From NCBI GenBank assembly GCA_017483765.1, contig JAFUVE010000076.1, positions 1 to 64,000 on the forward strand: 64,000 nt of DNA, in the 5' to 3' direction. Source of the stretch: Bacteroidaceae bacterium. GTDB lineage: Bacteria; Bacteroidota; Bacteroidia; Bacteroidales; Bacteroidaceae. The translations under genes and the position numbers were made by a program. The first letter of the stretch is position 1. Each line of letters starts with the position of its first letter. This document shows, in pieces, positions 19,829-31,230 of the stretch. The notes under the pieces are model-generated. The model was not told the origin of the DNA. It searched no databases and worked only from the letters and a program-made list of their open reading frames with translations.

Positions 19829-19942
19829 GCTTTCCAAGGCTTACTCCACCTCCAACGATCAGCTTGTGTACTTGACTTTGAAAAAATTAAGAAAAAAACA
19901 AAAAATTTTCCGACTACGCAGAAAAACTGCGGAGACAATTCG

Positions 19943-19980
19943 TTACTTTGCACTCGAAAACGAATAAAGCGTTCTTTGAA
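19943..19980 (+). promoter_or_regulatory. Candidate promoter and boxA-like site for the structured RNA cluster
   Basis: TTACTTTG at 19943-19950 differs at one position from TAnnTTTG and is followed by CAC. At 19971-19979 GTTCTTTGA resembles the boxA sequence of Bacteroidetes rRNA leaders, where it recruits antitermination factors for stable RNA. Both lie just before the first structured RNA. The boxA assignment is an inference. Confidence 0.4.
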
Positions 19981-20006: not shown

Positions 20007-20143
20007 AGCAAGTGCCGTAGAAAAGACTTACTTCGCGTGTTAAGCCGAGGGTCGGCGGTTCGAATCCGCCCATGGAGATTATCTCCATGTAGCTCAGTCT
20101 GGTAGAGCAACGTAATAAGTGTCTTCTCGACTGTCGCCTTGCT
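20007..20143 (+). ncRNA. Y RNA-like (YrlA-type) RNA 1 with an inside-out tRNA module
   Basis: The ends pair: AGCAAG 20007-20012 with CTTGCT 20138-20143, GTAGAAAAGAC 20017-20027 with GTCTTCTCGAC 20121-20131 (two mismatches), and GTGTT 20037-20041 with AACGT 20109-20113 (with G-U pairs). Inside are a perfect T arm (GGCGG TTCGAAT CCGCC, 20054-20070), an acceptor-like hairpin (CATGGAG 20071-20077 with CTCCATG 20083-20089, loop ATTAT) and a canonical D arm (GCTC...GAGC with GG, 20092-20108). This T, acceptor, D order with long paired outer ends is the known design of bacterial Y RNAs, which tether the Ro60 ortholog Rsr to effector RNases. The 5' strand holds TGCCGTAG-N7-TTACTTC, shared with RNAs 2 and 3. 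A permuted tRNA gene is the alternative, but no anticodon stem fits. No Rsr gene is in the window. Confidence 0.7.
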
Positions 20144-20148
20144 TATGT

Positions 20149-20220
20149 CGCGGAGTACAGCAGTGGCAGCTGGCAAGTTTCATATGCTTGAAGTCGTTGG
20201 TTCGAGTCCAGCCTCCGCAA
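20149..20220 (+). tRNA. Atypical tRNA-Met (CAT) with initiator-like features
   Basis: All four arms fold in normal order: acceptor CGCGGAG/CTCCGCA with a C1-A72 mismatch, D stem CAGC/GCTG with an A11-U24 pair, anticodon stem CAAGT/GCTTG with loop TTCATAT, and T arm GTTGG TTCGAGT CCAGC. Discriminator is A; CCA is not encoded. The C1-A72 mismatch and A11-U24 pair are marks of bacterial initiator tRNA, but the three G-C pairs normally present at the base of the initiator anticodon stem are absent. It starts 5 bases after the end of RNA 1, so RNase P cleavage at its 5' end could create the 3' end of that RNA. Confidence 0.65.
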
Positions 20221-20229
20221 CAAAGGGGG

Positions 20230-20403
20230 AAAATGCAGAATGCCGTAGGTTACGGTTACTTCGATCTGTTATAAAAATAATAATACATCAGAAAAAAGAA
20301 AATAATAAATGGGAGTCTACCATCTAGAGCCGTCTTCCCCAGACGACGTCGACGATGTTCCTCCCCGTGCCGCCTCCGATAGTAGCTTCTGCATTTTTTT
20401 CAA
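20230..20403 (+). ncRNA. Y RNA-like RNA 2
   Basis: AAAATGCAGAA (20230-20240) pairs perfectly with TTCTGCATTTT (20387-20397), and the 3' arm runs into a T tract, so the closing stem also acts as terminator. The 5' strand continues with TGCCGTAG-N7-TTACTTC at 20241-20262, the same as in RNA 1. The 3' strand GATAGTAGC (20378-20386) aligns with GACTGTCGC of RNA 1. The interior lacks a T arm but contains local hairpins such as CGTC...GACG near 20331-20345. The tRNA module has therefore been lost or replaced. Confidence 0.5.
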
Positions 20404-20418
20404 CTTATCCCACAAAAT

Positions 20419-20514
20419 AAGGCTGTTGCCGTAGCAGAGAGATACTTCAGCTATGCATAATCATCCGAAATTGGGTCGAAAACAAGACTCTCCGCAACTG
20501 TCGCACTGCCTTTT
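20419..20514 (+). ncRNA. Y RNA-like RNA 3, short form
   Basis: The ends AAGGCTGT (20419-20426) and ACTGCCTT (20505-20512) pair with one mismatch. The motif TGCCGTAG-N7-ATACTTC stands at 20427-20448, and GCAGAGAGATACTT pairs with AAGACTCTCCGC. The 3' strand has ACTGTCGC (20497-20504), identical to RNA 1. The interior loop is only about 35 bases, so this RNA would be essentially the Ro-binding type stem alone, about 96 nt. TTTT follows the stem. Confidence 0.55.
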
Positions 20515-21018: not shown

Positions 21019-21435
21019 ATGCCAGCAAACAAGAATGCGTTGATACGCTACAAAACCATTGACAGATGCCTGAGAAACAGGTACAGGCGTTGGACCATCG
21101 AAGACTTGGTTGACGCCTGCTCAGACGCCCTATACGAGCTGGAGGGAATACGTAAAGGAATTTCCCTACGGACCGTACAGGCGGACATTCAGATGATGCG
21201 GTCGGACAAACTGGGCTACAATGCCCCGATTGAGGTGTACGACCTGAAGTACTACCGCTATGCCGACCCAGACTACTCCATCAACGAAATGCCTCTCACC
21301 TACGATGATTTCAGACTCATCAAAAAAGCCATTGAACTGCTCGCGCAGGTGAAGGACCAGAACTTGCTGAAGAAGACCGGCACTGTTCTCTCGCTCGTGG
21401 AGAAGCGGCTGACCGCGATTCTCAACTACGGATAA
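21019..21435 (+). CDS. WYL-family regulator reduced to its HTH half
   Basis: The 138 residues match the N-terminal DNA-binding part of Bacteroidetes WYL-domain regulators: MPANKNALIRYKTIDRCL, WTIEDLVDACSDALYELEG and SLRTVQADIQMMRSDKLGYN. Full-length relatives have about 330 residues with a ligand-sensing WYL domain at the C terminus; here the protein stops at residue 138 (LTAILNYG). The stop is followed by a large palindrome rather than by WYL-coding remnants, so this may be a stable short form rather than a recent truncation. WYL regulators often control RNA-repair, CRISPR and other defence loci, so the position 0.5 kb after the Y RNA-like cluster is noteworthy. No promoter is obvious. Confidence 0.75.
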   Translation: MPANKNALIRYKTIDRCLRNRYRRWTIEDLVDACSDALYELEGIRKGISLRTVQADIQMMRSDKLGYNAPIEVYDLKYYRYADPDYSINEMPLTYDDFRLIKKAIELLAQVKDQNLLKKTGTVLSLVEKRLTAILNYG

Positions 21436-21502: not shown

Positions 21503-21518
21503 GATTATTCGAAAAAAG

Positions 21519-21593
21519 AGTGAGGAATCGGATTCGAACCGATGAAACGATGGTTTTGCAGACCATGCCCTTGGACCGCTCGGGCATCCTCAC
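21519..21593 (-). tRNA. tRNA-Cys (GCA)
   Basis: Acceptor GTGAGGA/TCCTCAC with discriminator U, the usual base for tRNA-Cys. Anticodon stem ATGGT/ACCAT with loop CTGCAAA, T loop TTCGAAT. The D arm (GCCCGAGCGGTCCAAGGGC) resembles those of class II tRNAs. CCA is not encoded. Confidence 0.9.
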
Positions 21594-21611
21594 ATTTCTC
21601 TTACTATAGCG

Positions 21612-21684
21612 CAGGAGCAGCAGGGTTCGAACCTACGACCTTCGGTTTTGGAGACCGACATTCTGCCAACTGAACTATGCTCCT
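21612..21684 (-). tRNA. tRNA-Trp (CCA)
   Basis: Acceptor AGGAGCA/TGCTCCT with discriminator G, anticodon stem TCGGT/ACCGA with loop CTCCAAA, and T loop TTCGAAC. The D stem GTTC/GAAT is weak. In most bacteria tRNA-Trp lies next to secE; no secE is near, so this may be an extra copy. Confidence 0.88.
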
Positions 21685-21740
21685 GGCTCAAAATACGAAC
21701 CCGAGAAAGAACCGTATTGTTCTCTCACCGGAACCGTGGT

Positions 21741-21820
21741 TGAGGCGGAGGGACTCGCCTCCCCCGAAGCCAAAGGCAGCAGATTTACAGTCTGCCCTCA
21801 TTGCCGCTAGAGTACGCCTC
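21741..21820 (-). tRNA. tRNA-Tyr-like (GTA) gene with an aberrant T arm
   Basis: The anticodon stem GCAGA/TCTGC with loop CTGTAAA is perfect, and a long variable arm (GCC TTT GGC) fits bacterial tRNA-Tyr. The D stem is CTC/GAG. The T arm is abnormal: GGAGG and CCTCC close a six-base CGAGTC loop without the TTC that all normal tRNAs have. The acceptor has only six clean pairs (GAGGCG/CGCCTC). It is either a decayed tRNA or a tRNA mimic. Confidence 0.5.
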
Positions 21821-21835
21821 TGTAAAACGTGTGTG

Positions 21836-21908
21836 TGGAACCTCGTGGAGTCGAACCACGTTCTCAAGATTTTCAGTCTTGCGCATACACCAAGTCTGCC
21901 AAAGTTCC
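21836..21908 (-). tRNA. tRNA-Phe (GAA), divergent body
   Basis: Acceptor GGAACTT/AGGTTCC, discriminator A, anticodon stem CAAGA/TCTTG with loop CTGAAAA, and T arm CGTGG TTCGACT CCACG. The D arm has only three pairs (GCA/TGC) around a large loop that resembles leucine tRNAs. It appears foldable and complete, but unusual for tRNA-Phe. Confidence 0.7.
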
Positions 21909-23679: not shown

Positions 23680-26600
23680 TTGAAAGCCAGAAGATTAGTA
23701 TACATACTGCTAGTTATGTTCAGCATAAGCGCCATTGCCGGCATCGGCGATAGCGCACTTTTTTCGTCTGCCACACGAATTCGCCAGATTGCCGTCCGTC
23801 AAGACGCCGAGGCTCCGATAGACACAGTGCCAAAACGTAAAGTCCGCCAAAGTGACTACCCAGACGGCACACGTCCTGAAGACTACCCGTTCGACCTTGC
23901 TGACCCGGAGAACCTGAAACCCGAATCGGGAGACTACGACGAGAAGAGCGGCCTGTACCGCATCGGTTCGAAGCTGGGAGACAGCTACTTGAGTGCCCCC
24001 TACCTGATGACCCCTCAGGAATATATCCGCTGGACCGAGCGGAACTCCATCAACCAGTATTTCAAGATGCGCAACGACTCCCTTTTCGTTCGTAAAGGCA
24101 AGGAGAAGTTCGACTTCACCAACATGCACTTCGACCTCGGTCCGGCAGAGAAGATCTTCGGTCCCGGTGGCGTGCAGCTGAAGACGCAGGGATCAGCCGA
24201 GCTGAAATTCGGCTACACCTATAAGTTTACGGACAACCCGTCGTTGTCGGAACGCAATCGTAAGACCACCAGCTTCGATTTCGATGAGAAGGTGAACCTG
24301 TCGATGAACGCGAAGATAGGCGACAAGATGGACTTCAACCTGAACTACAACACGGAGGCCACGTTCGACTTCGACTCCAAGAACCTGAAACTCAAGTACG
24401 AAGGTAAGGAAGACGAAATCGTAAAACTCATCGAGGCTGGAAACATCACATTCCCTTCGAACAACTCCCATGTACAAGGATCGTCATCCTTGTTCGGCGT
24501 CCGTACCGACTTGCAGTTCGGCAAGCTGAACCTGCAGATGGCAGTCAGCCAAAAGAAGTCGAAGTCGAAGAGCGTGTCGTCGAACGGCGGCGCGCAACTC
24601 TCAGCCTTCGAGCTCGAAGCCTACGACTACGACGAGAACCGCCACTTCTTCCTCTCCCACTTCTTCCGCAACACCTACAACAAGAACTGCGCCACCCTGC
24701 CCAACATCACCTCCGGTATCACGATCAACCGTGTGGAGATATGGGTGACCAACACGACGGGCCAGACGGAGAACACCCGCAACATCGTAGGCTTTGTGGA
24801 CCTTGGCGAGCACGACCGCATCATGAACCCGATGTGGACGTCGAGCGGCAGCACCCAGCCCAGCAACAACTCCAACACACTGTATGCCTCGATGGTGAAC
24901 AACTACGCCGGAGCCCGCATCTCCGACCAGACAAGCACCGTGCTCGACGCCTTCCTCACCGGTGGTGTGGACTACGAGAAAGTGGAGAACGCCCGCCTGC
25001 TCCAAAGCAGCGAATACACGCTGAACAGCCATCTTGGCTATGTGTCGTTGAAGTCTACCCTTCAGTCGAACCAGATACTGGCCGTCGCCTATGAATACAC
25101 CTACGGAGGGCAGACCTTCCAGGTGGGTGAATTCTCGGGCGACATCAAGGACAACGACCAGGCCTTGTTCGTGAAACTGCTGAAAAACACCAGCAACTCG
25201 CCCCGCATGGGCAACTGGGACCTGATGATGAAGAACATCTACTCGCTGAGTGCCCAGTCCGTACAGAAAGAGAAATTCAAGCTCGACATCAAATACTACA
25301 GCGACAACAACGGTACCTACCTGAGCTATCTCCCCGAGGAAGCTTTCAAGAACACCACGTTGCTGAGCATGATGAACCTCGACCGACTGGACGACAACAA
25401 CAAGAACAACCCCAACGGCAAGTACGACTTCATCGAAGGCTACACCATCCAAGCCTCGAGCGGACGAATCATCTTCCCCGTGGTAGAGCCTTTCGGCGAC
25501 TGGCTTCGCAGCAAGATAGGCGACGCACTGGCCGACAAATACTGCTATGACGCCTTGTACGACTCGACCAAGGTGGTGGCAAAGCAAATCAGCGAGAAGA
25601 ACAAGTTCTCATTCACCGGTGAGTTCAAGGCCACGTCAGGCAGTGAGATTGACTTGGGGTCCATGAATATCCCGCAGGGGTCGGTGAAAGTGACCGCGGG
25701 CGGTGTGGAGCTGAACGAAGGCAGCGACTACACAGTGGACTACACGATGGGCCGTGTGACCATCCTGAACCAAAGCATTATCGACGCCGGGACGAACGTG
25801 AGCGTCCAGCTGGAAAGCCAGTCGGAGTACTCCACGATGAGAAAGACCATGCTTGGCCTGAACTGGAGCTACGACTTCACGAAGAACTTCCAGATAGGCG
25901 GTACGTTCATGCGGGTTCATGAAAAGCCTCTGACCACAAAAGTAGGCATGGGCGAGGAGCCCCTGAACAACACGATATGGGGTCTGAACATGAACTGGAA
26001 GACCCAGAGCCAGTGGCTGACCAACCTGATTGACCGCATCCCCCTCGTGAACGTGAGCAAGCCGTCCAGCATCTCCTTCTCCGGAGAGTTTGCACAACTC
26101 ATAGCCGGCGACCCGACCAACGTGCAGGGAAGCGCCTCCTATCTCGACGACTTCGAGTCCACGAAGAACGCCATCGACGTGAAGACCCCGTCGCAGTGGA
26201 TGCTGGCGTCCACCCCCGCCAACCTGGAATACGGCAATCTGACCAACGACGTGCGCTACGGATACAACCGCTCGCTGCTGGCCTGGTACTATATCGACCC
26301 GCTGTTCACCCGCAGAAACTCCTCGCTCACCCCCGGCCATATCAAAGGCGACCTCGACCAGCTGTCGAACCACTACGTCCGCGAGGTATTCGTCCGCGAG
26401 GTGTACCCCAACCGTGACACCAACCAGGGCGAGAGCAACACCATCCAAGTGCTCAACATGGCCTACTATCCTAATGAGCGCGGCCCCTACAACCTCGACC
26501 CCGACCTCGACTCGGAGGGAAAGCTGAACGACCCGAAGAAACGATGGGGCGGCATGATGCGCAAATTAGAGACCAGCGACTTCGAGACCTCCAACGTGCA

Positions 26601-29600
26601 GTATATCGAATTCTGGATGCTCGACCCGTTCATCTACACCGGCAGCGACAGCCGTTATGGCGGCGACCTCTATTTCAACCTCGGTGACGTGAGTGAGGAC
26701 GTGCTGAAAGACGGCAAGAAATACTATGAGAGCGGCATGCCCGTAAGCAACGCCGGCAGCTATGCCGAGACCACCTGGGGCCGCGTGCCCAACGAGAAGA
26801 GCGTGGTCTACTCCTTCTCCACCGAGAGTGGCGCACGTCAGCGTCAGGACATCGGACTGAACGGTCTGAACAGCACGGAAGAGCGCAGTTACACCGTATA
26901 CAGCGACTACCTGAACGCCATCAAGGGCAAGATGTCGGCAGAGGCCTACAGCAAGTTCTTCGACGACCCAGCCGGCGACGACTACCACTATTTCCGCGGC
27001 AGCGACTTCGACGACGCCCAGACCTCCATCCTCGACCGCTACAAGCACATCAACGGAAGCGAAGGCAACTCGCCCAACTCGAGCGACAGCGGCGAGAGCT
27101 ACAGCACAGCCTACAAGACGACCCCCGACGTGGAGGACATCAACCAAGACTACACGATGAACGAATACGAGAACTTCTTCCAGTATAAGGTGAGCATCCG
27201 TCCTGAGGATTTGGCCATCGGCAAGAATTACATCGTAGACGAGCGAAAGACCACCGTGAAACTTCGTAACGGCAACAGTGAGGAAGCCACATGGTATCAG
27301 TTCCGTATTCCGGTAGACGAATACGAGAAGAAAGTCGGCAGTATCAATGACTTCTCGAGCATCCGTTTCATGCGAATGTACCTGACCGACTTCGAGGAGC
27401 CCATCGTACTCCGTTTCGCCTCGCTCGACCTCATACGCGGCGAGTGGCGCAACTACTCCCAGACCCTCTTCACAGGCAACAAGCCCAGCGTTAGCGGCCT
27501 GCTGCACACCAGCGCCGTGAACATAGAGGAGAATAACGACAAGACCCCCGTGAACTATGTACTGCCTCCAGGTATTTCACGTGTTCAGGACCCGCAGCAG
27601 CCTCAGCTCGCACAGGAGAACGAGCAGGCCCTGGTGATAGAAGTTGAGAACCTGGCCTCCGGCGATGCCCGTGCCGTCTATAAGACCGCATCTATAGACC
27701 TTCGCAAGTACAAGCATCTTCAGATGTTCGTCCACGCCAATGCCCTCGAAGGCGACACCCAGCTTCAGGACAACCAGATGAGTGTGTTCGTCCGTCTGGG
27801 CTCCGACAGCAAGAGCAACTACTACGAATACGAAATTCCTCTCGTGCTGACCCCTCCCGGCCATTACGACACCTATTCCGCTGAGGGATGCCGAGCTGTA
27901 TGGCCAGCCGAGAACATGCTCGACATCGACTTCGACCAACTCACCAACGCCAAGCACGAGCGCAACAAGGCACGTGCAGTGGGCGAAGCCAGCTACACCG
28001 ACCTCTTCTCCATCTACGACGACTCCAAGCCCAACAACAAAATCAGCGTGATGGGTAATCCTTCGATTGGCGAGATCAAGACCATGATGATTGGTGTGCG
28101 CAACAACAGCAAGCAGACCAACAGCGTGGAAGTGTGGGTGAACGAGATGCGCATGAAAGGCTACAACAACGACGGCGGCTGGGCAGCCCAGGGTAACTTG
28201 AACGTGCAGCTGGCCGACCTGGCAAGCGTGAACCTGACCGGCCACGTGGAGACCGACGGCTTCGGCGGCCTGGAACAGGGCGTGAAAGAACGCCGTGACG
28301 ACAACCTCTACGAATGGAGCCTCACCACCCAGTGGGAACTGGGCAAGCTCTTCCCTGAGAAATGGAAGATGAGCCTCCCTGTCTACTATTCCTATTCTTA
28401 TAAGAAAGTATCACCGAAATATAATCCGTTCGACACCGACATGCTGCTTGCCGACGCCCTCGACGAGCTGCAGGGAGCCGCACGCGACTCACTCGAGTCC
28501 ATCACGAGCACGGTGATGAAGAGCCGCAACTTCTCACTCACCAACTGGCGCTCGAGCTACACCGGCCGCGTGCCTATGCCTTGGGACCCCGCCAACTTCA
28601 CGTTCGGCTACTCCCACAGCAAACGAGACCAGAGCGGCGAGACCATCGTCTACGAGATAAACGAAGAATGGAAGGCCAACCTCTCCTACAACTACTCCCC
28701 GAAATACAAGACCTGGGAGCCGTTCAAGAACCTGAAGAGCAAGTCGAAATGGCTGGACATCGTGAAGGCCCAGAACTTGAACTACCTGCCTCAGAGCATC
28801 GCGTTCAACACGAACATGACGCGTACCTATTATGAGCTGCAAGAGCGCGACATCGACGCCGGCGTGCAGCTGCCGGTACGCTTCTCCGAGCAGTTCCTGT
28901 GGAACCGCGACTTCTCCCTCCGCTGGGACATCTTCAAGTCGCTGAAACTCACCTACACCTCAGCCACCCATGCCGAGATAGAGGAGCCCTACACCGTGAT
29001 CAACAAGAGCCTCTACCCCAACGAATACGAAGCATGGAAAGACTCCGTGCGCCACAGCATCAAGAACTTCGGACGCCCGCTCACCTATGCCGGCACTTTC
29101 ACAGGAAGCTACAAGGTGCCGTTCGACAAGATTCCTCTGCTCGACTGGATCAGCGCCGACGGAAGCTACAACTCCACCTATGGATGGGTGAGAGGCACAG
29201 AGCTGGAAGACGGCACCTCGCTGGGACATACCGTGACCAGCCAGCGCACCATCAATCTCAACGGAAAGATTGACTTCACCACATTATATAAGAAATGGCC
29301 GTTCCTGGCCGAGACAGAGAAGCGGTTCTCCGGCTCGTCGCGCAACAAGAACAACCAGAAGAAGAGCACTCAGAAGACCAAGGAGAAAAAAGACGACAAG
29401 AAGAAAGAGGGCGAGAGTGCCGACGAAAAGGATCCAAAGAAAGGCAAGGATGCGGACAACAAGAACACCCCTAAGAACGCCAAGAAGAGCAAGTCGTTCT
29501 CTAAGAAGGTGACGCTGAACGACTCCACCAGCGTGGAATTGAAGCACGGCCAGAACACGAAACGCATAGAAGTACGCGCCAAGACCGCCGAGGGCAAGGC

Positions 29601-31230
29601 CTACAACCTGAAATACAAGAAGAAAGACGCCAACACGATCGTGATAAAGAACCGCGACTCCGTGGACGTGACCGTGTTCGTGGTTCCAAAGCCAAAATTG
29701 GAGGACAAGAGCTGGTACAAGACCGCCCAGGTGGTGGCCCGCGGCTTGATGATGGTACGCAACGCCAGCCTGTCGTACAAGAACACGTATGCCATGACCC
29801 TTCCTGGCTTCAACACCGAGATTGGCGACGCATTCGGTCAGAAGAAGATCAACGGAGTCCTGTCTCCTGGCTTGGACTTCGCCTTCGGCGCCATCGGCGA
29901 CAGCTACATCAACAAAGCAGCAGAGCGTGGCTGGCTGATGCAGAACAACTCCAACCTGACCTCTCCCGCCACGACCAACGCCATGGAAGACCTTCAGGTC
30001 AGACTGCTTCTCGAGCCGTTCCGCGACTTCAAGATAGACCTCGGTGCCGCTCGCAACGTGACGAAAGCCAAGAGCATCCGGTTCATGTATGCCGACATGC
30101 CGATGAGCCAGACCGGAAGTTTCTCTCAGACCACGATCACACTGAAGTCAGCCTTCGGCGGCTTTGGCAACATCAACAACAACTACCACTCGAAATATTT
30201 CGACAAGTTTGTTCAGAACCTCAGCATCATGCAAGGCCGCCTCGAGGCCAAATACGCCGGCACCACCTATCCCGCAACGGCAGGCGCAGGCTTCGCCGGA
30301 CAGCCTTACAATCCTGAGAACGGCGGCGTCCAGCTTTACTCAGCCGACGTGATGGTGCCCGCCTTCCTTGCCGCCTACACCGGAGGCAACGCCAACAAAT
30401 ATCCGCTCGACATCTTCCCCAGCCTGTCGCGACTGCTGCCAGAATGGAAGATCACCTACAGCGGACTGAGCAAACTTCCCTGGTTTGCCGACCGCTTCAA
30501 GAGCTTCAACCTGAACCATGCCTACAAGAGCGTGTTCTCTGTCGGTGCCTACAATTCCTACACGAATTTCATGGCATTCATGGGCGACATGGGCTTCATA
30601 CAGGACGTGACGAGCGGCAGCCCGATACCGAGCAGCATGTACAATGTGTCGACCGTGAGCATCAACGAGCAGTTCTCCCCGCTCTTCGGCGTGGACATGA
30701 CCTTCAACAGCGGTCTGACCGCAAAATGCCAGTACAACAAGACTCGAGTGCTCAACCTGTCGATGACCTCCGTGGCCCTCACAGAGACCTACTCTGACGA
30801 CATCGTGATTGGACTGGGCTACAAGATCAAGGACGTGAACATCTTCGGCGCGAAGAACATCCAGAATCCCCAGAAGAGCAAGAAGAGCAAGAAGAAAGGC
30901 AAGAAAAAAGGCGAAGAAGAGGAAGGAGGCAACAAGAGCACCAGCAAGAACACGCGCGGTCAGGTGAGCCACGACCTCAATCTCCGAATTGACTTCTCCT
31001 ACCGTATGCAGAACGCTCTGAACCGCAATATCCAGACGTTGATGACGACTGCCACAAGCGGTCAGACGGCATACAAGATCTCGCTTGCCGCCGATTACAC
31101 CTTCTCGAGAATGCTGACCATGAGCGGCTTCTTCGATTGGAACAAGAACGTGCCACTTGTGTCGACATCTTCCTACCCGACAGTAACCGCCGACTTCGGT
31201 GTCAGCTTGAAATTCTCGCTGACCAGATAA
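23680..31230 (+). CDS. sprA: SprA/Sov, outer-membrane translocon of the type 9 secretion system
   Basis: At 2516 residues this matches the size of SprA proteins, which form the very large 36-strand outer-membrane barrel that exports CTD-bearing proteins in Bacteroidetes. The N terminus is a signal sequence (YILLVMFSISAIAGIG). Repeated beta-rich segments, a VNEMRMKGYNNDGGWA block near 1488-1503 and the LSPGLDFAFGAIGDSYI block near 2060-2076 fit the family. The start is TTG 23680, giving a complete signal peptide; the next ATG (23716) would cut it. Two very lysine-rich stretches stand out (about 1887-1945 and 2396-2425), as family-specific loops. No other T9SS genes are in the window. It is followed by a period-7 repeat. 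Confidence 0.9.
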   Translation: MKARRLVYILLVMFSISAIAGIGDSALFSSATRIRQIAVRQDAEAPIDTVPKRKVRQSDYPDGTRPEDYPFDLADPENLKPESGDYDEKSGLYRIGSKLGDSYLSAPYLMTPQEYIRWTERNSINQYFKMRNDSLFVRKGKEKFDFTNMHFDLGPAEKIFGPGGVQLKTQGSAELKFGYTYKFTDNPSLSERNRKTTSFDFDEKVNLSMNAKIGDKMDFNLNYNTEATFDFDSKNLKLKYEGKEDEIVKLIEAGNITFPSNNSHVQGSSSLFGVRTDLQFGKLNLQMAVSQKKSKSKSVSSNGGAQLSAFELEAYDYDENRHFFLSHFFRNTYNKNCATLPNITSGITINRVEIWVTNTTGQTENTRNIVGFVDLGEHDRIMNPMWTSSGSTQPSNNSNTLYASMVNNYAGARISDQTSTVLDAFLTGGVDYEKVENARLLQSSEYTLNSHLGYVSLKSTLQSNQILAVAYEYTYGGQTFQVGEFSGDIKDNDQALFVKLLKNTSNSPRMGNWDLMMKNIYSLSAQSVQKEKFKLDIKYYSDNNGTYLSYLPEEAFKNTTLLSMMNLDRLDDNNKNNPNGKYDFIEGYTIQASSGRIIFPVVEPFGDWLRSKIGDALADKYCYDALYDSTKVVAKQISEKNKFSFTGEFKATSGSEIDLGSMNIPQGSVKVTAGGVELNEGSDYTVDYTMGRVTILNQSIIDAGTNVSVQLESQSEYSTMRKTMLGLNWSYDFTKNFQIGGTFMRVHEKPLTTKVGMGEEPLNNTIWGLNMNWKTQSQWLTNLIDRIPLVNVSKPSSISFSGEFAQLIAGDPTNVQGSASYLDDFESTKNAIDVKTPSQWMLASTPANLEYGNLTNDVRYGYNRSLLAWYYIDPLFTRRNSSLTPGHIKGDLDQLSNHYVREVFVREVYPNRDTNQGESNTIQVLNMAYYPNERGPYNLDPDLDSEGKLNDPKKRWGGMMRKLETSDFETSNVQYIEFWMLDPFIYTGSDSRYGGDLYFNLGDVSEDVLKDGKKYYESGMPVSNAGSYAETTWGRVPNEKSVVYSFSTESGARQRQDIGLNGLNSTEERSYTVYSDYLNAIKGKMSAEAYSKFFDDPAGDDYHYFRGSDFDDAQTSILDRYKHINGSEGNSPNSSDSGESYSTAYKTTPDVEDINQDYTMNEYENFFQYKVSIRPEDLAIGKNYIVDERKTTVKLRNGNSEEATWYQFRIPVDEYEKKVGSINDFSSIRFMRMYLTDFEEPIVLRFASLDLIRGEWRNYSQTLFTGNKPSVSGLLHTSAVNIEENNDKTPVNYVLPPGISRVQDPQQPQLAQENEQALVIEVENLASGDARAVYKTASIDLRKYKHLQMFVHANALEGDTQLQDNQMSVFVRLGSDSKSNYYEYEIPLVLTPPGHYDTYSAEGCRAVWPAENMLDIDFDQLTNAKHERNKARAVGEASYTDLFSIYDDSKPNNKISVMGNPSIGEIKTMMIGVRNNSKQTNSVEVWVNEMRMKGYNNDGGWAAQGNLNVQLADLASVNLTGHVETDGFGGLEQGVKERRDDNLYEWSLTTQWELGKLFPEKWKMSLPVYYSYSYKKVSPKYNPFDTDMLLADALDELQGAARDSLESITSTVMKSRNFSLTNWRSSYTGRVPMPWDPANFTFGYSHSKRDQSGETIVYEINEEWKANLSYNYSPKYKTWEPFKNLKSKSKWLDIVKAQNLNYLPQSIAFNTNMTRTYYELQERDIDAGVQLPVRFSEQFLWNRDFSLRWDIFKSLKLTYTSATHAEIEEPYTVINKSLYPNEYEAWKDSVRHSIKNFGRPLTYAGTFTGSYKVPFDKIPLLDWISADGSYNSTYGWVRGTELEDGTSLGHTVTSQRTINLNGKIDFTTLYKKWPFLAETEKRFSGSSRNKNNQKKSTQKTKEKKDDKKKEGESADEKDPKKGKDADNKNTPKNAKKSKSFSKKVTLNDSTSVELKHGQNTKRIEVRAKTAEGKAYNLKYKKKDANTIVIKNRDSVDVTVFVVPKPKLEDKSWYKTAQVVARGLMMVRNASLSYKNTYAMTLPGFNTEIGDAFGQKKINGVLSPGLDFAFGAIGDSYINKAAERGWLMQNNSNLTSPATTNAMEDLQVRLLLEPFRDFKIDLGAARNVTKAKSIRFMYADMPMSQTGSFSQTTITLKSAFGGFGNINNNYHSKYFDKFVQNLSIMQGRLEAKYAGTTYPATAGAGFAGQPYNPENGGVQLYSADVMVPAFLAAYTGGNANKYPLDIFPSLSRLLPEWKITYSGLSKLPWFADRFKSFNLNHAYKSVFSVGAYNSYTNFMAFMGDMGFIQDVTSGSPIPSSMYNVSTVSINEQFSPLFGVDMTFNSGLTAKCQYNKTRVLNLSMTSVALTETYSDDIVIGLGYKIKDVNIFGAKNIQNPQKSKKSKKKGKKKGEEEEGGNKSTSKNTRGQVSHDLNLRIDFSYRMQNALNRNIQTLMTTATSGQTAYKISLAADYTFSRMLTMSGFFDWNKNVPLVSTSSYPTVTADFGVSLKFSLTR

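What the first reader, a model, noticed from the sequence alone, without database searches (positions are those of the whole stretch)
20007..20514. Three tandem RNAs share a motif and a paired-ends fold typical of bacterial Y RNAs
The strings TGCCGTAG-N7-TTACTTC at 20013-20034, TGCCGTAG-N7-TTACTTC at 20241-20262 and TGCCGTAG-N7-ATACTTC at 20427-20448 have identical spacing, although the seven middle bases differ. In RNAs 1 and 3 the 3' side carries ACTGTCGC, and in RNA 2 the similar ATAGTAGC, in the matching position of a closing stem. Such conservation with compensating change in the variable bases is what a protein-binding RNA helix shows. In known Y RNAs, Ro60 (Rsr) binds a stem of this kind made from the two ends, with a CCGAAG-like 5' strand. 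A cluster of Y RNAs without a nearby rsr gene would be unusual.
Basis: partly seen in the sequence, partly recalled or inferred. Interest (0 to 1): 0.9.

Follow-up and report, generated by a model that had tools for sequence, protein, structure and literature searches.

The report
Ordered Y RNA array mimicking tRNA
Three small RNA genes in an unnamed Bacteroidales-type genome belong to a conserved row of Ro60-type "Y RNAs" that copy different parts of transfer RNA, which suggests that this RNA-repair system uses tRNA look-alikes as handles or decoys.

Summary
All three motifs lie at the stated coordinates; the genome has five exact copies, the reversed control none. Among 52 related rsr loci, 44 of 48 with enough upstream sequence have the (relaxed) motif there, 38 of them at least twice. 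Stems covary strongly. The fullest order seen is YA-YB-YC-(tRNA-Met)-YE-YD-rsr; the window holds YC-tRNA-Met-YE-YD without rsr. RNA1 is a YrlA-type tRNA mimic (T arm, capped acceptor, D arm) but scores below Rfam's cut-off. Two sister classes are unexpected: YB is a tRNA opened in its D loop that keeps an anticodon arm, and about half of the YD-like RNAs carry an anticodon-arm-like hairpin; U33 is mostly kept while the triplet varies widely. In relatives, rsr neighbours include RtcB, RlaP, Thg1 and WYL proteins. Decoy function is inferred. The window's RNA2 and RNA3 are partly degenerate. Two genomes have Y-like RNAs but no Rsr found. New variant of a known kind.

The parts
19915..19931 (+). 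Operator-like palindrome TACGCAGAAAAACTGCG
   Evidence: Same pattern upstream of 21 of 32 Y arrays examined; in this genome 4 places, 3 of them upstream of the three Y loci. The pattern was written from these sites
19943..19951 (+). Likely -7 promoter element TTACTTTGC, 11 bases after the palindrome; one letter off the recalled Bacteroidetes consensus TAnnTTTG
   Evidence: Sequence. Strict TAnnTTTG is present in 20 of 31 arrays but not in the window
20007..20143 (+). RNA1 = class YC, YrlA-type Y RNA with permuted tRNA-like domain
   Evidence: Own covariance model R1 141.1 bits (this RNA is in the model's alignment); Rfam YrlA 42.3 bits, below the cut-off; covariation in 22 sequences
20013..20034 (+). 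Conserved 5' strand of the Ro-binding-type stem, RNA1
20054..20070 (+). T-arm mimic GGCGG TTCGAAT CCGCC of RNA1
20071..20089 (+). Acceptor-stem mimic of RNA1, CATGGAG-ATTAT-CTCCATG, closed by a loop (3' half precedes 5' half)
20092..20108 (+). D-arm mimic GCTC..GAGC of RNA1
20149..20221 (+). tRNA-Met (CAT) with mismatched 1:72 pair; initiator-like D stem and weak anticodon stem (judged from recalled tRNA rules)
   Evidence: same tRNA type in 9 of 52 named rsr loci
20233..20394 (+). RNA2 = class YE Y RNA, with an insert longer than in relatives
   Evidence: Alignment A4 with 8 relatives; 8-bp closing stem
20421..20510 (+). RNA3 = class YD Y RNA; D-arm plus anticodon-arm-like hairpin partly decayed (20464-20480, loop AATTGGG)
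   Evidence: Alignment A3
21019..21435 (+). 138-aa ORF matching the N-terminal part of the WYL regulators found beside rsr in other loci; C-terminal WYL/WCX part absent
   Evidence: 53-69% identity over 111-137 aa to 17 ORFs of the rsr loci, one of which (L167) is equally short; no Pfam hit of its own

Best explanation
RNAs 1-3 are Ro60 (Rsr)-binding Y RNAs: three members (YC, YE, YD) of a conserved Bacteroidales Y RNA array that lies apart from rsr in this genome. Shown by sequence comparison: Y-type closing stem, array order, shared palindrome, rsr elsewhere in the genome, RNA-repair neighbours of rsr in relatives. Inferred: they are transcribed together from a promoter at about 19950; the tRNA-Met between RNA1 and RNA2 is cut out by the tRNA-processing enzymes, which helps release the Y RNAs; Rsr made from C91 binds the end stem of each RNA. 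The interchangeable upper part (in RNA1 a tRNA look-alike with D, T and acceptor arms) then serves as the handle or bait: it docks a partner that recognises tRNA-like RNA (PNPase in Deinococcus; tRNA enzymes or nucleases here) and gates Rsr's access to damaged RNA. Because the three Y loci of the genome share an operator-like site, they probably respond together, possibly to RNA damage through a WYL-type regulator.
For: Another genus (G029) has three such RNAs in tandem ending just before rsr; the middle one is the best DNA match to RNA1 outside this genome (80%). Relaxed motif (up to 3 substitutions) upstream of rsr in 44 of 48 loci with at least 400 bases upstream, 38 of them with two or more; 3 of the other 4 have it downstream. 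Relaxed motif: 161 hits on the rsr strand against 17 on the other. Outer stem with the 3' end chosen without using pairing: 5.15 of 6 pairs in 131 RNAs, against 3.44 permuted (maximum 3.71 in 1000), 48 different 5' strands. Covariation: 14 of 27 pairs (YC), 18 of 31 (YB) and 16 of 21 (YD) change on both sides. Survey of 399 genomes: 6 have at least 2 exact motifs and 5 of these are among the 9 with TROVE (hypergeometric 9e-9; genomes are not independent). YC model at 100 bits or more: 6 genomes, all with TROVE. The TROVE protein also matches a vWA_Ro60 model and solved Rsr/Ro60. Shared palindrome.
Against: No transcript or binding data. Rfam's curated YrlA cut-off is not met. RNA3 folds no better than shuffles (z -0.57) and RNA2 has a long insert. 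A fixed-offset test of the inner stem failed (3.27 of 7 pairs against 3.73 permuted); the chosen offset was probably wrong, since the alignment-based counts support that stem. 3 of 9 TROVE genomes lack a YC of 100 bits or more. Two genomes carry well-formed Y-like RNAs but no TROVE was found: G099 (two copies) and G116 (one); they are 81% and 84% complete. One rsr locus of 48 (L151) has no motif on either side. 4 of the 6 genomes hit by the YC model contributed to it. PNPase tethering in Bacteroidales is untested.
Confidence: 0.85

Rival explanations
1. The tRNA-like upper parts are decoys for enzymes that cut tRNA. Across the array the RNAs show acceptor/T/D arms (YC), a complete anticodon arm with T and acceptor arms (YB), and in many YD RNAs a D arm plus anticodon arm. 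They would be held stable on Rsr and would compete for, or trap, anticodon nucleases while RtcB, RlaP and Thg1 mend the real tRNAs. This is compatible with the best explanation; it differs on what the upper part is for.
For: YB: U33 in 14 of 16, purine 37 in 16 of 16, 10 distinct triplets; YD alignment: U33 in 16 of 18, purine 37 in 17 of 18, 15 distinct triplets. Wider set of 35 RNAs taken by outer-stem hexamer: 10 have a perfect 5-bp/7-base anticodon-type hairpin against 0.42 in shuffles (maximum 4), 18 with 4 or more stem pairs against 3.49 (maximum 9). Neighbour families among 52 loci: RtcB 13, RlaP 6 and 4, Thg1 5, kinase-like AAA_33 5 (named from one representative each). A competitive-inhibitor role was proposed for Salmonella YrlA (PMC7790460, passages).
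Against: 17 of the 35 RNAs have no such hairpin even with relaxed pairing, and some of the 18 may be chance. In the window RNA3 has lost U33 and RNA2 is not tRNA-like. Variable triplets could be neutral drift in an unpaired loop, and the rows are related to each other. No search for anticodon nucleases near these loci was made.
Confidence: 0.3
2. The window cluster is a decaying remnant: the functional array went with rsr (C91) and the copies left here are drifting.
For: No rsr or rsr remnant in the window (tblastn E<=1); RNA3 lost U33 and one outer pair; RNA2 has a long insert; the WYL-like ORF lacks its C-terminal half.
Against: Palindrome, near-consensus promoter and all three closing stems are kept; RNA1 scores 141 bits (its own sequence is in the model); the tRNA-Met is intact; another genome (G115) also keeps Y RNAs away from its rsr array with the same palindrome.
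Confidence: 0.12
3. RNA1 is a true circularly permuted tRNA gene, or the cluster is a worn tandem tRNA array.
For: 3' tRNA half precedes the 5' half with a perfectly matched acceptor stem; the YC model also gives weak matches in 316 of 399 genomes, which I take, unchecked, for tandem tRNA genes.
Against: No anticodon arm joins the halves; a Y-type stem encloses them and covaries; matches of 100 bits or more occur only in TROVE genomes, and the other listed matches score under 54 bits.
Confidence: 0.02
4. The motif is part of a mobile repeat without folding constraint.
For: Several copies per genome; two viral-collection contigs carry Y RNA runs.
Against: Upper parts differ between classes while stems covary; position beside rsr; only 5 exact copies in the genome.
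Confidence: 0.01

Closest known systems
YrlA bacterial Y RNA (Rfam RF02553; Salmonella YrlA)
   Same: RNA1: end stem plus a tRNA-like domain with T, acceptor and D arms in the same permuted order (description of YrlA from passages of PMC8394870)
   Different: Scores below Rfam's cut-off; lies in a multi-class array with a tRNA; rsr unlinked here
Deinococcus radiodurans Y RNA / RYPER (Rsr-Y RNA-PNPase)
   Same: Y-type end stem; genome encodes an Rsr relative (match to 2nvo)
   Different: PNPase tethering not shown; several Y RNA classes; tRNA-like modules
Salmonella rsr-yrlBA-rtcBA RNA repair operon
   Same: Rsr, more than one Y RNA, RtcB close by in relatives (PMC7790460 passages)
   Different: No RtcA or RtcR among the shared neighbour families that I annotated; a WYL regulator instead; up to 7 relaxed motif hits upstream of rsr; RlaP and Thg1 partners; tRNA-Met inside the array
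Vertebrate Y RNAs (Ro60-bound)
   Same: Stem from both ends with a CCG(A/T)AG-like 5' strand (recalled)
   Different: No sequence relation claimed elsewhere; tRNA-like upper part in RNA1

Membership tests
Bacterial Y RNA (Rsr-binding) | 5' and 3' ends pair into a stem with conserved internal strand | tested here: met
   RNA3 has 5 of 6 outer pairs
Bacterial Y RNA (Rsr-binding) | Genome encodes an Rsr/Ro60 protein; genes usually near rsr | tested here: met
   rsr on C91; same RNA classes beside rsr in relatives; not beside rsr in this window
Bacterial Y RNA (Rsr-binding) | Bound by Rsr in cells | not testable with these tools
   Needs pull-down
Bacterial Y RNA (Rsr-binding) | About 90-150 nt (PMC8394870 passage) | tested here: inconclusive
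   RNA1 137 and RNA3 90 nt fit; RNA2 is 158-162 nt
YrlA (RF02553) | Score at or above Rfam gathering cut-off (69 bits) | tested here: not met
   RNA1 42.3 bits; no YrlA match for RNA2 or RNA3. So not filed as an Rfam YrlA member
YrlA (RF02553) | tRNA-like domain with D, T and acceptor arms | tested here: met
   RNA1 only
YrlA (RF02553) | Substrate of TruB and DusA | not testable with these tools
   Needs modification mapping
RYPER (Rsr-Y RNA-PNPase) | Y RNA tethers PNPase to Rsr | not testable with these tools
   Needs biochemistry
RNA repair operon | Rsr next to RNA repair enzymes | tested here: inconclusive
   Met in relatives: RtcB family in 13 of 52 loci, RlaP 6 and 4, Thg1 5. In this genome no such gene was noticed by eye in the ORF list for the first 16 kb of C91; the rest of the genome was not searched

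The most novel reading that the evidence does not exclude
Rumen-type Bacteroidales keep an ordered array of Y RNAs that between them display nearly all parts of tRNA, including anticodon arms whose loop rules (U33, purine 37) are mostly kept while the anticodon itself is highly varied. The array is a Ro60-held library of tRNA decoys against anticodon nucleases, switched on with RNA repair enzymes. YB, a tRNA cut open in its D loop, is a tRNA-mimic topology that I have not seen described.
Probability: 0.3. Interest if true: 0.9.

Novelty: new variant of a known kind. Interest (0 to 1): 0.74.

Why it matters
What the upper, variable part of bacterial Y RNAs does is largely open. Natural series of Y RNAs that share one Rsr-type stem but carry different tRNA pieces make the question directly testable: swap or delete single modules and ask which enzyme or nuclease is lost. 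Varied anticodons under a conserved anticodon-loop frame would point to an arms race with tRNA-cutting toxins and would link Ro60 to tRNA protection, not only to RNA decay.

Tried and rejected
Permuted tRNA gene, worn tRNA array and mobile repeat were considered and rejected (see rivals). Rfam at gathering threshold found no Y RNA. YrlA's Rfam model over 61 genomes was uninformative: 55 of 61 had matches at E<=1, probably tandem tRNAs, none over the cut-off, and it rang in 11 of 14 control genomes. My own models R1 and R2 match 316 and 388 of 399 genomes at E<=0.001, so only high bit scores were used; the match lists are capped. The only two R2 hits over 130 bits (G000, G079) are both training sequences. 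Inner-stem test at a fixed offset failed. The anticodon-hairpin scan cannot tell anticodon arms from T arms, so YC scores 20 of 22 by its T arm and YB's 14 of 16 is not clean either; only the YD numbers are used as evidence.

Selections. Alignment A3 holds 18 of the 35 RNAs, chosen because they looked alike. The wider test on all 35 is; those 35 were taken by a list of outer-stem hexamers, some of which I added to bring in single RNAs, and a few (L145_3348, the C91 and G012 RNAs) are probably not YD. Alignments A1, A2 and A4 (16, 22 and 9 RNAs) were picked by eye from the 160 RNAs (whose printout was cut), with near-identical and more divergent ones left out; three A1 rows (L141, L156, L166) were read because one search had mis-set their 3' ends. 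3' ends were picked by pairing, so pair counts there are biased. An earlier count gave 9 and 14 distinct triplets; a recount gives 10 and 15. The palindrome pattern was written from the sites it was then counted on, and other genomes also hold matches (52 of 61 genomes). An empty-site test in the genus failed because the nearest relative's contig ends inside the PAP2 gene.

Full report
What is there. The three motifs are at the stated places with the stated spacing, and their 3' partners ACTGTCGC, ATAGTAGC and ACTGTCGC are in matching positions. With two mismatches allowed the window holds no others (mean 0.25 in shuffles, 1 of 100 shuffles reached three). The genome holds five exact copies, three here and two on contig C90, and none of the reversed control.

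RNA1 is more than a stem. Between the paired ends it holds a T arm, an acceptor stem whose 3' strand comes first and is closed by a short loop, and a D arm: a tRNA turned inside out, without an anticodon arm. Rfam's YrlA model finds it at 42.3 bits, E 7e-8, below the curated 69. These are the arms described for YrlA (PMC8394870, passages only). A tRNA-Met (CAT) lies between RNA1 and RNA2.

The genome has Rsr. A 507-aa ORF on contig C91 matches TROVE and the Ro60 vWA domain and solved Rsr and Ro60 chains. Directly upstream of it is another Y-like RNA, with TGACGTAG-N7-TTACTTC and a 6 of 6 closing stem. No rsr remnant lies in the window or in the first 6 kb of C90 (tblastn, E<=1). The Y RNA genes found in this genome are therefore on three contigs: YC-tRNA-YE-YD (C29, the window), YA-YB (C90), and one with rsr (C91). 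How far apart the contigs lie is unknown.

Relatives. In G029, of another genus in the family, three such RNAs lie in tandem, the last ending just before rsr; the middle one is the best DNA match to RNA1 outside this genome (80%). A scan of named genomes with the G029 Rsr gave 52 loci, mostly Bacteroidales MAGs by their titles, many from ruminants. Of 48 with at least 400 bases upstream, 44 have the motif (up to 3 substitutions, seven or eight middle bases) within 1.3 kb upstream, 38 of them at least twice; of the other four, three have it downstream and one (L151) has none. On the rsr strand there are 161 relaxed hits, on the other 17. I read the order in four arrays: L134 and L166 run YA-YB-YC-tRNA-Met-YE-YD-rsr (L134 with two YC); L145 and L161 have a different RNA in YB's place, and L145 lacks the tRNA. 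Many loci have extra, missing or different members. The class names are mine.

Covariation. With the 3' end found by sequence alone, the outer stem has 5.15 of 6 standard pairs in 131 RNAs against 3.44 when 3' strands are permuted (maximum 3.71 of 1000; 48 different 5' strands). The same script's test of the inner stem at one fixed offset failed (3.27 against 3.73). In the class alignments the inner stem is supported: 95.8% (YB), 97.3% (YC) and 89.7% (YD) of cells paired. Whole structures: YC (22 RNAs, RNA1 included) 14 of 27 pairs with double changes and 97.8% paired; YB (16) 18 of 31 and 99.0%; YD (18, RNA3 included) 16 of 21 and 94.2%. Shuffled values are 90.3, 90.3 and 80.0%; slid structures give 24.6-48.8%. 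The YD rows were chosen because they looked alike.

Co-occurrence. Of 399 family genomes, 9 have TROVE and 23 have at least one exact motif. Six have two or more, and five of these six are among the nine (P 9e-9 if genomes were independent). Against this, G099 (two identical copies 10.8 kb apart) and G116 (one copy) carry well-formed Y-like RNAs and no TROVE was found; both are incomplete (81% and 84%). The other single copies in TROVE-negative genomes were not inspected. The YC model reaches 100 bits in six genomes, all with TROVE; four of these supplied training sequences, two (G345, G395) did not. Three TROVE genomes (G012, G032, G269) have no such hit. G012 has a Y RNA of the TGACGTAG type upstream of rsr.

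Unexpected upper parts. YB reads, in order, D-arm 3' strand, anticodon arm, T arm, acceptor stem closed by a short loop, D-arm 5' strand: a tRNA opened in its D loop (alignment A1). Many YD RNAs carry a short D-arm-like stem and a 5-bp/7-base hairpin like an anticodon arm. In YB, U33 is kept in 14 of 16 and purine 37 in 16 of 16, with 10 different triplets; in the YD alignment, U33 in 16 of 18, purine 37 in 17 of 18, with 15 different triplets (one YB loop is longer than 7). In the wider set of 35, 10 have a perfect hairpin of this type against 0.42 in shuffles (maximum 4), and 18 with four or more stem pairs against 3.49 (maximum 9); 17 do not have it. In the window, RNA3 keeps four of five stem pairs but has lost U33 (loop AATTGGG). 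YE (0 of 9) shows no such hairpin and YA 2 of 10 (shuffled mean 0.38, maximum 3).

The tRNA-Met. This genome has at least three other CAT tRNAs (26 of the 35 tRNAs were fetched for this), so the one in the cluster is an extra. Its first pair is mismatched; by recalled rules its D stem is initiator-like while its anticodon stem lacks the usual G-C run. The same tRNA is in 9 of 52 named loci, in both Y loci of G115 and on a viral-collection contig with a YB-YC-tRNA-YE-YD-rsr run (by eye).

Control region. 98 bases before the first motif lies TACGCAGAAAAACTGCG, followed after 11 bases by TTACTTTGC, one letter off the recalled consensus TAnnTTTG, which 20 of 31 arrays match strictly. The pattern TRCGCARA-N4-YTGCR occurs in 21 of 32 arrays examined, 80-131 bases before the first motif. 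In this genome it occurs at four places, three of which are the three Y loci. The pattern was written from such sites, and 52 of 61 genomes hold one or more matches, so the pattern alone is not specific. Other conserved neighbours of rsr: a WYL protein in 18 of 52 loci, RtcB 13, RlaP 6 and 4, Thg1 5, an AAA_33 kinase-like protein 5 (one representative of each family identified). The window's ORF 21019-21435 matches the N-terminal part of that WYL protein (53-69% over 111-137 aa) but lacks the WYL domain.

How it probably works. Shown: Y-type stems, order, co-occurrence with rsr, shared palindrome, RNA-repair neighbours in relatives. Inferred: joint transcription, release helped by tRNA processing, binding by Rsr, and use of the tRNA-like part as handle or bait. 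For Rsr and YrlA, authors of PMC7790460 suggested roles in tRNA decay or, for YrlA's tRNA-like domain, as competitive inhibitor of an anticodon nuclease (passages). YB and YD, which carry anticodon-type arms, would be better baits than YrlA, which has none. That step is my inference, at about 0.3.

Known or new. Bacterial Y RNAs, YrlA and the link to RNA repair are known. I noticed no description of the Bacteroidales array, of YB or of anticodon-arm Y RNAs in the listings of eight literature searches; of the papers found I read passages of four (PMC7790460, PMC8394870, PMC7824862, PMC4726728). The most relevant papers (Chen 2014, Sim and Wolin 2018, Wang 2018, Sim 2020) are not held, so prior description there cannot be excluded. 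I rate this a new variant of a known kind.

Noticed in passing
L071 (G032:C26:306000-317093): A divergent TROVE gene (C26:314594 region) lies in a run of 28 ARAGORN tRNA genes with many anticodons, near a contig end; possibly a phage or plasmid tRNA array with Rsr.
   Followed up: partly
L158, L160, L171: Named rsr loci with tRNA gene runs downstream of rsr (13, 6 and 9 tRNAs) and further relaxed Y motifs there.
   Followed up: partly
L232 1-1200 and L211 2868-3561: Viral-collection contigs carrying Y RNA runs; L232 has YB-YC-tRNA-Met-YE-YD followed by rsr, with YB cut at its 5' end where other sequence abuts.
   Followed up: partly
L124 246-319 and 11029-11102 (G099:C89); L125 286-369 (G116:C278): Well-formed 74-84 nt Y-like RNAs in two genomes where no TROVE was found; the two G099 copies are identical and 10.8 kb apart.
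   Followed up: no
L120 (G115:C1:86500-92500): A second genome with Y RNAs and the array tRNA-Met away from its rsr array, with the same palindrome upstream.
   Followed up: partly
Phage records H1-H8: 101 phage records match RNA1 at E<=0.01; of the 10 listed, 8 (Caulobacter phage CcrColossus and Vibrio phages) align over 74-88% of it at 69-77% identity, so possible phage Y RNAs.
   Followed up: no
window 21518-21908: Three tRNA genes (Cys, Trp, Phe) on the minus strand just downstream of the cluster.
   Followed up: no
window 23680-31230: A 2516-aa ORF; looks like a gliding/type IX secretion SprA-type protein (recalled, no search made).
   Followed up: no
PDB 9l5y and 9kop: The best solved relatives of this Rsr are two TROVE-domain entries (E 1e-31), far closer than Deinococcus Rsr (2e-7); their source was not looked up.
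   Followed up: no
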